Assembly: GCA_016191525.1 (NCBI GenBank)
Contig: JACPOK010000033.1
Span: forward strand, 434,001-498,000
From: Burkholderiales bacterium
GTDB taxonomy: Bacteria; Pseudomonadota; Gammaproteobacteria; Burkholderiales; Burkholderiaceae_C
Direction of reading: 5' to 3'
DNA: 64,000 bases
The notes below the pieces were generated by a model that had not been told where the DNA came from, ran no database searches, and worked only from the letters and a program-made list of their open reading frames with translations. This document shows positions 1 through 4,602 of this stretch, piece by piece; the stretch's first letter is position 1, and each line of letters begins with the position of its first letter. The translations under genes and the position numbers were made by a program.

Positions 1-2705
1 CACGAAGCCACATGCGCCTCCAATAAGTTCCAACTATGAAGGCGGCCACCGATCACAGGCTCTGGATTGATAAATAGCCCAATCAATGGGCAAGAAAATA
101 TGGTGCGGAACAAGGGTAGATCGCGCCACTGTGCGGGATCCCACCTCCCAGTCGCCGGGAAATTTCTGTAAAACACAACATCGGACGCAGTCGGGTTGTC
201 CAAAATCGGACCCACCCTTCGACGGCTGTGTTGCGCGCGGTCTACACCGCGCGCAAGCATCTCCTCAACAAGTACAGCATTGAGAAATGCGATGACCTGG
301 CGATGAAACAATTGCCCAGCGAAATAGCTATCCACGGGAACTTCTACATCCATCCGCGCAAGCGTGTAAAACAGCCGAGTCGCGATCCTACTAAACGTAC
401 TGGCAGGCAACCCAACATCCGTAGCGGCGGCGGTATTTCCCCACTGCTCGAGAACATCGTAAAGGTAGTCACCACGGGGGGGCAATGTGTTCTCTGGAAA
501 ATACTCCTCGTCAGAATCCTCCGCTGCCGTCGGTGCGCCGAGGTTCACATCAACCCCGCGACCAGTCGCGAACGCGGGAGAGTGATAGCTTCTCAATTGG
601 CAGAGCTTCTCCAATTGTGTGCGCATGCTTTGCCCATGATCAAATCCAGAACTCGCGCGTCGACTGACTTCGGCAGTCTTGATCAATTCGCTCAAGATAC
701 CTATGAACGAAAAAATGGATAGTACCGTGGTGTCTTGACCGCGGCGATCTGTAACAATGCACGCAGCCAACTTAAGAAGGTTGCCTCGTCCGTCTTGAGT
801 GCGAGTGACGAGACTATCGAAAGTGTTGTACGCGGTGCCGCGCAAGTACTTGTATTCATCAAACGGAACGTCCCTTAGCTTCCTAACCCAGCTTTCCAGT
901 GGGGCTGGTAACTCAATTTTTCCGTAGAGTTCAGCAAAGAAGGTGGCGGTAGAAACCCGACCAGTCTCCGACGTTTTCTTGAAGCCGCGATACAAGGAGG
1001 GAATAGCTACCCCCGCCCCGACGTGTGTCCCATACAAAGCCACGATGCCGCGACCCATTCCATATGGCCCCCGAAAGAGCTCTCTTTGAGTAGCCACTGA
1101 GAGTCTTGCAACTGTCGCCGCTGGTTCTCGTCTATCCATGCCCGTCGCCGCCACAATCGCCCTCGCTTCAATGCCGTCGGGGCGTTGCACGATCAATTGA
1201 TTTACAAAACCCACTTTGACCAAGAAGGCTAGAGCTTGACTAGGTTCCGCCGCAAACACTCGCGTCAGTTGCGCAGCAAAGCAAAGAACCGTCAGATTCT
1301 CATCATTGGTCTTGGAGTCCAAACGGAGCCTGCTGGCTTGCGCCCAACGACTCTGTGTCGTCATCCACCGCGAAAACTCTCCAATGACCTCGTCGCCATT
1401 CCCTCCGATGAGTTGTGGACTGACGCCGACGTGATACAACGACGACGAAAAGACCGCCGTCATGTCGCGTGCCACTGCGCCGGCCGTCACTACGGTCTCG
1501 ACGTTCTCCGATACGGCACTTCTTGTTGAGCGAAGCACCTGCACCACTGTGCGCAACGGCTGCTCCATCAACACATCAACAATCGATCGCAGCTCCCGCG
1601 CATCACGAATACTAGTGCCGCGTGTGACGATCGTTCTCAAAGTCTCAAAAACCGGTCGCGCCGAAACGCCTTCGTCCTCGCTGTCATAAAACTCGATGCT
1701 CCCCCGCGGCAAGTTTTCTGCGTAGTCCCTCAAGGTACTCAACGCAATTCGGTAGCTAGGCTGGAGCAGTTTTTGCAGGTACTGATCTTCCAGGCGAAAG
1801 ACGGCTGACATGAGGTTGTCATCGGCCCAATGAGGGAGCGACTCAGGCGCGTGGTGCTCCAGGCTCGGCCGATCCACTTCCATCATCTCGCGGCCAAAGT
1901 TCTTGTACAAAGCCCGCCTCACTAGACGTGCGTAGAGTTCGATATCTCCCGAGACGATGACTTGCAACTTACTGCTAACCAGATACTTGCGGAGTGCCTC
2001 AAGCACGGGCCATCCGCTGCCGAAATCTGTATCAATGTCATCGAAGGTGACAAGAAAGCACCCTTTGCTGACCAACGCCAGTGCTTCAGCAAGGTATTCT
2101 TCGAAATGCGCGCGAAACTGAGTTTGCGAACTGGTGGTCTGCAATCCGCTCTCCAGAACGTACTGCGGATCCTCCCAACTGTCGCTGTATGCACGTTCGG
2201 GCCCAACGCCTTCCATCACAGTCAGAGCACGAGCTAACAGCTTAAGCGCAGCGTAGTACGAATCAGGTAAAGGGCCTGGGTGCTTTTCCTGCCAGTGCAG
2301 CGTACAAGCGTCGTTAATTAGCCCAATGACCACGACTACAACATTCTGCTTCTGCTCCAGTAGCGTAGGGTCAATGACAGGCAACGGCCAGAAGGAATTC
2401 GATAGCTCGACGTCCACTGACCGAATGTATTGCAGCACATTTCGAATAAATGTCGTTTTGCCGCTACCTCGAGTCCCATGAACCGTGAGCGCCGTGTGGC
2501 GATGATCTTGGAAAAAGCTTTGTTCGCCGTCCTTTTCATTCCTTCGGTAGAGCTCCTGCTTCTCAGCTTCCCGAGCGTTGGCACGAAGGAGCGCCAGGAT
2601 ACGTGCAAGTGCTTCTGAATGAACGAACTCTTGTTCGCTCCCGGCACGGGCTCGCCGTCCTTGAGCACTTAAATTGATCAGAATCTTAGAATTTGAATTT
2701 GCCAC
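1..2705 (-). CDS. Large P-loop NTPase (partial; C-terminus beyond left edge)
   Basis: Manual minus-strand reading: GTG start at 2705 preceded by AGGGGCGGAT; no in-frame stop to position 1. Walker A-like HGTRGSGKTTFIRNVL near residue 70 and Walker B-like CFLVTFDDIDTDF followed by LQVIVSGDIELYARLV. Absent from the ORF track because the stop lies outside the window. Confidence 0.85.
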   Translation of the reverse strand, partial: MANSNSKILINLSAQGRRARAGSEQEFVHSEALARILALLRANAREAEKQELYRRNEKDGEQSFFQDHRHTALTVHGTRGSGKTTFIRNVLQYIRSVDVELSNSFWPLPVIDPTLLEQKQNVVVVVIGLINDACTLHWQEKHPGPLPDSYYAALKLLARALTVMEGVGPERAYSDSWEDPQYVLESGLQTTSSQTQFRAHFEEYLAEALALVSKGCFLVTFDDIDTDFGSGWPVLEALRKYLVSSKLQVIVSGDIELYARLVRRALYKNFGREMMEVDRPSLEHHAPESLPHWADDNLMSAVFRLEDQYLQKLLQPSYRIALSTLRDYAENLPRGSIEFYDSEDEGVSARPVFETLRTIVTRGTSIRDARELRSIVDVLMEQPLRTVVQVLRSTRSAVSENVETVVTAGAVARDMTAVFSSSLYHVGVSPQLIGGNGDEVIGEFSRWMTTQSRWAQASRLRLDSKTNDENLTVLCFAAQLTRVFAAEPSQALAFLVKVGFVNQLIVQRPDGIEARAIVAATGMDRREPAATVARLSVATQRELFRGPYGMGRGIVALYGTHVGAGVAIPSLYRGFKKTSETGRVSTATFFAELYGKIELPAPLESWVRKLRDVPFDEYKYLRGTAYNTFDSLVTRTQDGRGNLLKLAACIVTDRRGQDTTVLSIFSFIGILSELIKTAEVSRRASSGFDHGQSMRTQLEKLCQLRSYHSPAFATGRGVDVNLGAPTAAEDSDEEYFPENTLPPRGDYLYDVLEQWGNTAAATDVGLPASTFSRIATRLFYTLARMDVEVPVDSYFAGQLFHRQVIAFLNAVLVEEMLARGVDRAQHSRRRVGPILDNPTASDVVFYRNFPATGRWDPAQWRDLPLFRTIFSCPLIGLFINPEPVIGGRLHSWNLLEAHVAS

Positions 2706-4602: not shown

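What the first reader, a model, noticed from the sequence alone, without database searches (positions are those of the whole stretch)
1..4602. Candidate undescribed two-gene defence module: OLD/TOPRIM ATPase plus a giant P-loop NTPase
Seen: two adjacent minus-strand genes 91 bp apart in a stretch visibly more AT-rich than the rest of the window. The upstream gene (2797-4602) combines an OLD/AAA_15-like ABC ATPase with a TOPRIM-like C-terminus (VEGKTEE...FDSEGKSD...ENYFLVP). The downstream gene is a >=901-codon P-loop protein (GTRGSGKTTF; FLVTFDDIDTDF). Established: OLD-family ATPase-nucleases act in antiviral systems (P2 OLD, Gabija GajA, PARIS AriA plus TOPRIM AriB) and large P-loop/STAND NTPases are common defence effectors or sensors. 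Inference: pairing an OLD-TOPRIM protein with a giant P-loop partner, with no GajB-type helicase visible, may be a novel or variant system.
Basis: partly seen in the sequence, partly recalled or inferred. Interest (0 to 1): 0.85.

Follow-up and report, generated by a model that had tools for sequence, protein, structure and literature searches.

The report
Divergent RADAR system beside OLD nuclease
The 'giant P-loop protein' is the ATPase half (RdrA) of a divergent copy of RADAR, a known bacterial anti-phage system whose deaminase half (RdrB) lies just outside the window; the OLD nuclease gene beside it looks like a separate defence gene that happens to sit next door, not its partner.

Summary
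Extending left in the same genome shows that the "giant P-loop NTPase" (window 1-2705, complete at 964 aa) is followed, 4 nt after its stop, by an 802-aa adenosine deaminase. Sequence, solved-structure, fold and operon evidence identify the pair as RdrA and RdrB of RADAR. It is a divergent copy: 125 and 150 bits against NCBIfam cut-offs of 600 and 800, but the whole RdrA model matches RdrA structures, and RdrB's metal-ligand and catalytic residues are kept. The upstream gene (2797-4602) is a complete OLD-family ABC-ATPase/TOPRIM protein. It is not a recurrent RADAR partner: 0 of 60 other RdrA-family loci have it beside rdrA, and 0 of 47 RADAR genomes searched contain a homologue. Four OLD relatives seen in context have no RADAR nearby. 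The three genes share foreign composition (third-position GC 0.55-0.58, against 0.81-0.91 in neighbours), so they form a small defence island holding RADAR plus a probably independent Class 1-like OLD. That the OLD works with RADAR is not excluded: the nearest RdrA relatives (32-36% identity) could not be seen in context, nor could close OLD homologues.

The parts
2797..4602 (-). OLD-family protein, 601 aa: N-terminal ABC ATPase plus C-terminal TOPRIM. GTG start 16 bp after the stop of the aminotransferase gene, behind a GGAG ribosome-binding-like site. Predicted active-site residues K37 (Walker A), E393, E397, D458, E460, E487, K564.
   Evidence: AAA_15 3e-19, AAA_21 8e-19, weak OLD-like_TOPRIM 0.004; PADLOC HEC-01A, Old and GajA hits; 1811 homologues, best full-length 54% identity; residues from the 38-sequence alignment; AlphaFold pLDDT 85, Foldseek matches to retron-Eco8 OLD, TsOLD 6p74 and GajA.
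1..2705 (-). rdrA, in-window part (901 of 964 codons). The complete gene is L003:3811-6705, i.e. it ends 190 bp left of the window. The rdrB gene (adenosine deaminase, 802 aa, ATG start 4 nt after the rdrA stop) follows at L003:1398-3806, wholly outside the window (window position = L003 position - 4000).
   Evidence: NCBIfam RdrA NF041743 3e-36; PADLOC RdrA 5e-19; PDB 8hr7 2e-38; AlphaFold model pLDDT 82 matches RdrA structures over its length, E 1e-30, TM 0.67/0.76. RdrB: NF041744 1e-43, PADLOC RdrB 4e-30, PDB 8fnv 4e-80.
4603..4618 (-). 16-bp gap between the aminotransferase stop and the OLD start: right-hand edge of the low-GC block
   Evidence: Sequence and per-gene GC; no recognisable promoter-like site over L003 1200-9200.

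Best explanation
A small horizontally acquired defence island of three co-directional genes: a stand-alone (rdrAB) RADAR system of a divergent clade, plus an adjacent, probably independent Class 1-like OLD nuclease. Inferred from characterised RADAR: RdrA forms an AAA+ ring that responds to infection and docks on the RdrB shell, and RdrB deaminates ATP/adenosine mononucleotides to inosine forms, which blocks phage replication. Inferred for OLD: an ABC ATPase controls a metal-dependent TOPRIM nuclease that cuts DNA on a phage-linked trigger. Shown here: gene identities, the RdrA fold, conserved RdrB catalytic residues, conserved OLD metal-site candidates, shared foreign composition, and the lack of OLD-RADAR association elsewhere. 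Not shown: any activity, trigger, expression or phage protection.
For: RdrA by sequence and by fold over the whole protein, with every hit at E<=0.001 being RdrA. RdrB by sequence with the HxH, H, E, H and D residues 98-100% conserved in 49 loci. 49 of 55 RdrA-family loci have rdrB directly downstream; 5 of the rest are cut by the contig end and L035 is followed by an IS110-like transposase. 5 of 5 further loci from the same order also have rdrB. OLD fold and domains. Independence of OLD: none at rdrA in 55 loci or 5 more, none in 47 RADAR genomes. The same OLD search did detect 29-35% relatives elsewhere (HMM 399-437 bits), which have no RdrA/RdrB around them. Composition.
Against: OLD and rdrA are co-directional, 91 bp apart and compositionally alike, which could mean one transcript and a shared function. 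The OLD-RADAR test did not reach the closest RdrA relatives (P0123-P0129, 32-36%) nor the closest OLD homologues (45-54%). RdrA and RdrB fall far below NCBIfam equivalog cut-offs, so substrate and trigger may differ from characterised RADAR.
Confidence: 0.82

Rival explanations
1. The OLD protein is an accessory subunit of this RADAR: a new subtype next to rdrAB, rdrABC (Csx27) and rdrABCD (SLATT), for example an effector or sensor that adds DNA cleavage or regulates RdrA.
For: Same strand, 91-bp gap, matched composition; accessory genes are known for RADAR (PMC7699616); other RADAR loci also carry a defence-type gene directly upstream, such as a 1269-aa SIR2-like gene in L029 and L059.
Against: No OLD beside rdrA in 60 other loci; no homologue anywhere in 47 RADAR genomes; genes directly upstream of rdrA are varied, which is what defence-island shuffling gives.
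Confidence: 0.12
2. One reading: OLD plus the P-loop protein form an undescribed two-gene system.
For: Adjacency only.
Against: The P-loop protein is RdrA by sequence and by full-length fold, and its conserved partner RdrB follows it; homologues do not pair with OLD.
Confidence: 0.02
3. The OLD is a known multi-gene type (Gabija GajA, retron effector or PARIS) that lost or sits away from its partner.
For: Best PADLOC hits include GajA and AriA; the best fold match is the retron-Eco8 OLD.
Against: No GajB helicase beside it (by inspection); no reverse transcriptase family match in the whole genome (PF00078); ATPase and TOPRIM are in one protein, unlike AriA/AriB; relatives seen in context are single genes.
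Confidence: 0.04

Closest known systems
RADAR (RdrA + RdrB), e.g. E. coli P0304799.3 and C. rodentium DBS100
   Same: Two overlapping-to-adjacent genes rdrA-rdrB; full RdrA fold; RdrB deaminase with conserved metal and catalytic residues; similar protein sizes.
   Different: Low identity (RdrA fold match about 19-20%); below NCBIfam cut-offs (125 vs 600, 150 vs 800 bits); no Csx27 or SLATT gene recognised by inspection; an OLD gene upstream.
Class 1 OLD nucleases (P2 Old, Thermus scotoductus OLD)
   Same: Single-gene ABC ATPase + TOPRIM of about 600 aa without a helicase gene; EGxxE and a second acidic motif.
   Different: Second acidic motif is DxE (D458, E460) rather than DxD; an invariant lysine late in the protein (K564) resembles the Class 2 lysine in relative position; it lies in a defence island, while Class 1 OLDs are described as not near other defence genes (PMC10568477).
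Gabija GajA (Class 2 OLD)
   Same: ABC ATPase + TOPRIM architecture; fold match 8sm3, E 3e-12.
   Different: No gajB beside it; about 14% identity in the fold alignment.
Retron-Eco8 OLD effector (Class 3)
   Same: Best whole-chain Foldseek hit (9lpa, E 2e-13).
   Different: No reverse transcriptase match in the genome.

Membership tests
RADAR | RdrA: large AAA+ protein with the RdrA-specific C-terminal domain | tested here: met
   Sequence hits E 3e-36 and 2e-38; full-length fold match to RdrA structures, TM 0.67/0.76.
RADAR | RdrB: about 800-aa adenosine deaminase encoded next to rdrA | tested here: met
   PDB 8fnv E 4e-80 over residues 166-813; starts 4 nt after the rdrA stop.
RADAR | Deaminase metal ligands and catalytic residues | tested here: met
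   H163, H165, H514, E517, H546, D755 (802-aa numbering) conserved in 98-100% of 49 homologues.
RADAR | Score above the curated NCBIfam equivalog cut-offs | tested here: not met
   125 vs 600 and 150 vs 800 bits. Six other RdrA-clade members are also below (131-166 bits) while the Aliivibrio RADAR control is above (781 and 970). This is a naming threshold for one clade, not a defining feature of the system.
RADAR | RdrA-RdrB complex, ATP deamination, phage protection | not testable with these tools
   Needs biochemistry and phage challenge.
RADAR subtypes with Csx27 or SLATT | rdrC (Csx27) or rdrD (SLATT) membrane protein gene | tested here: inconclusive
   No such gene recognised by inspecting the ORF lists around the island; not scanned with a dedicated model.
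OLD family | N-terminal ABC ATPase with Walker A/B and C-terminal TOPRIM in one chain | tested here: met
   the Pfam TOPRIM hit itself is below its cut-off (18.2 vs 23.2 bits), so TOPRIM rests on motif conservation and fold.
OLD family | Metal-site acids of TOPRIM (E/E, DxD, E, K/R) | tested here: met
   E393, E397, D458, E487, K564 invariant and E460 nearly invariant in 38 homologues; correspondence to P2/Ts/Bp residues is by motif, not by superposition, and D-to-E at the second position is a difference.
Gabija | UvrD/Rep-like GajB gene adjacent | tested here: not met
   Neighbours are rdrA and an aminotransferase.
Retron (Class 3 OLD) | Reverse transcriptase gene with the OLD | tested here: not met
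   No PF00078 match in the genome, controls positive.
PARIS | AriA ATPase and AriB TOPRIM (separate or fused) | tested here: inconclusive
   AriA profile hits weakly (E 1e-19), but so do 146 other ABC-type models; a fused AriAB was not tested specifically.

The most novel reading that the evidence does not exclude
The OLD-TOPRIM protein is a functional third component of this divergent RADAR, giving a new subtype in which nucleotide-pool deamination is coupled to a DNA nuclease.
Probability: 0.12. Interest if true: 0.6.

Novelty: new member of a known kind. Interest (0 to 1): 0.27.

Why it matters
It shows that RADAR extends well beyond the clade that current annotation models name: RdrA-family loci in at least nine phyla carry rdrB directly downstream, and the clade members tested fall below the NCBIfam cut-offs, so such systems are probably missed or called 'hypothetical protein'. 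It also removes a false lead: an apparently novel OLD/P-loop pair was an artefact of the window edge. If the OLD gene did prove to work with RADAR, it would link nucleotide depletion to DNA cleavage.

Tried and rejected
Empty-site comparison: the aminotransferase is kept in 48 of 60 same-genus genomes, but none of its neighbours is shared in the seven regions fetched, so the insertion site could not be defined. Edge repeats or an integrase: only chance-length repeats, no recombinase recognised. Promoter/terminator scan: nothing above shuffles. Rfam: no hit. Viral contigs with the RdrA profile: none; with OLD: two, one of them SIR2-associated and one fragmented. Phage records: no OLD. Plasmids: one OLD relative and four RdrA relatives. 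RdrB protein search returned only itself, because the candidate list was filled by sequences sharing common words. Searching Azospirillaceae for the closest RdrA clade found only 26-36% relatives, from genomes already sampled. Rejected: Gabija, retron and the two-gene OLD/P-loop system, as argued in the rivals.

Full report
OBSERVATION. The two minus-strand genes are real and at the stated coordinates. OLD is 2797-4602 (GTG, 601 aa); the P-loop gene opens at GTG 2705 (964 aa when complete; 91-bp gap) with an alternative GTG at 2732. GC is 0.53-0.56 over the first 5 kb against 0.60-0.74 elsewhere in the window.

EXTENDING LEFT. The window is G000:C30:434001-498000, so the missing DNA could be read. 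In L003 (window position + 4000) the P-loop gene ends at 3811, and a further co-directional ORF (1398-3806 from its ATG, 802 aa) begins 4 nt after its stop. The low-GC block ends there: the next gene left (an NHL-repeat-like protein) has third-position GC 0.89, the aminotransferase to the right 0.81, and the three island genes 0.55, 0.58 and 0.55.

IDENTITY OF THE P-LOOP GENE AND ITS PARTNER. The P-loop protein matches RdrA models (NF041743 3e-36; PADLOC 5e-19) and RdrA structures 8hr7/8fnt (2e-38). The match by sequence is confined mostly to the ATPase half, so I tested the rest by fold: an AlphaFold model from 35 homologues (pLDDT 82, pTM 0.81) aligns over about 1000 columns to RdrA chains at E about 1e-30, TM 0.67/0.76, and every match at E<=0.001 is an RdrA. 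The next gene matches RdrB models (1e-43; 4e-30) and RdrB structure 8fnv at 4e-80; the HxH pair, HxxE, GH and D residues of the deaminase are conserved in 98-100% of 49 homologues. An RdrA-profile scan of one genome per species gave 55 loci from at least nine phyla; 49 have an RdrB homologue directly downstream, five are cut by the contig end and one is followed by an insertion-sequence transposase. Five further loci from the same order show the same pair. The system is therefore RADAR.

HOW DIVERGENT. NCBIfam scores are 125 (cut-off 600) and 150 (cut-off 800) bits; six other RdrA proteins of the same wider clade score 131-166, while an annotated Aliivibrio RADAR scores 781 and 970. In a tree of 64 RdrA proteins the window's copy groups with P0123-P0129 (32-36% identity; support 98), several from Azospirillum and Nitrospirillum, on a long branch; other long branches make deeper placement unsure. 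Published RADARs are themselves that divergent: 22-28% identity restricted to the ATPase and deaminase regions, all protective (PMC9994260).

THE OLD GENE. It has an N-terminal ABC ATPase (AAA_15, AAA_21) and a weak TOPRIM Pfam hit. Across 38 homologues K37, E393, E397, D458, E487 and K564 are invariant and E460 nearly so. The model (pLDDT 85) matches retron-Eco8 OLD, T. scotoductus OLD and GajA along most of the chain, with low overall TM because domain orientation differs or is uncertain. By the published scheme (PMC10568477) a single-gene OLD without helicase or reverse transcriptase is Class 1-like. Mapping to the known metal sites (PMC7049728) is by motif only.

DOES THE OLD BELONG TO RADAR? 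From RADAR: no OLD beside rdrA in 55 + 5 loci (one 32-bit ABC hit about 4 kb from rdrB in L057, not an OLD-level score); no OLD homologue at E<=1e-30 in 43 RADAR genomes, nor at 1e-20 in 4 more. About six of the 55 loci show under 1.9 kb upstream of rdrA, so the upstream test rests on about 49. From OLD: 1811 homologues exist, but only one of 400 genomes of the order carries one at 1e-60, the window's own; four relatives at 29-35% identity seen in context have no RADAR nearby. The OLD profile finds those four at 399-437 bits, so the negative result is not for want of sensitivity. Gap: the closest RdrA clade and the 45-54% OLD homologues could not be seen in context. The genes directly upstream of rdrA elsewhere vary widely, which fits chance neighbours in defence islands.

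MECHANISM. From the characterised systems (PMC9994260): RdrA heptamers dock on a dodecameric RdrB whose active sites convert ATP to ITP, and inosine nucleotides accumulate during infection and limit phage replication. I infer the same here. For OLD I infer an ATPase-controlled, metal-dependent DNA nuclease acting on its own trigger.

KNOWN SUBTYPES AND VERDICT. RADAR subtypes described are rdrAB, rdrABC (Csx27) and rdrABCD (SLATT) (PMC7699616); no paper in the held library was found that describes an OLD accessory. The best reading is a stand-alone rdrAB RADAR of a divergent clade with an adjacent OLD in one small acquired island: a new member of a known kind. A functional OLD-RADAR link remains possible at about 12%.

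Noticed in passing
L029:1010-4816 and L059:6052-9858: A 1269-aa SIR2-like gene lies 101-117 bp upstream of rdrA on the same strand in Yersinia nurmii and Edaphovirga cremea: another candidate gene fixed next to RADAR, though the two loci are near-identical and count as one event.
   Followed up: partly
L102:2834-6649 and 7473-9269; L091:7368-9140 and 9995-11806: Relatives of the window's OLD (29-35% identity) lie beside SIR2-type genes on a Rhizobium jaguaris plasmid (annotated SIR2 family protein, divergent strand) and on a viral contig (SIR2-like by eye).
   Followed up: partly
L103:16326-17927: An adenylosuccinate synthetase-like gene about 0.9 kb downstream of rdrB on Rhizobium leguminosarum pRLN3, notable because RADAR acts on purine nucleotides.
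   Followed up: no
L010:5127-8714 and L018:971-4507: DndC/DndD-like gene pair upstream of rdrA in Shewanella pneumatophori and a MAG, recognised by eye: defence clustering.
   Followed up: no
L035:9872-12815: RdrA frame ends early and runs into an IS110-like transposase frame; no RdrB found: a probably broken RADAR.
   Followed up: no
L002:4555-6894 (about 15 kb left of the window): 779-aa patatin-like phospholipase in the normal-GC region of the same genome, recognised by eye.
   Followed up: no
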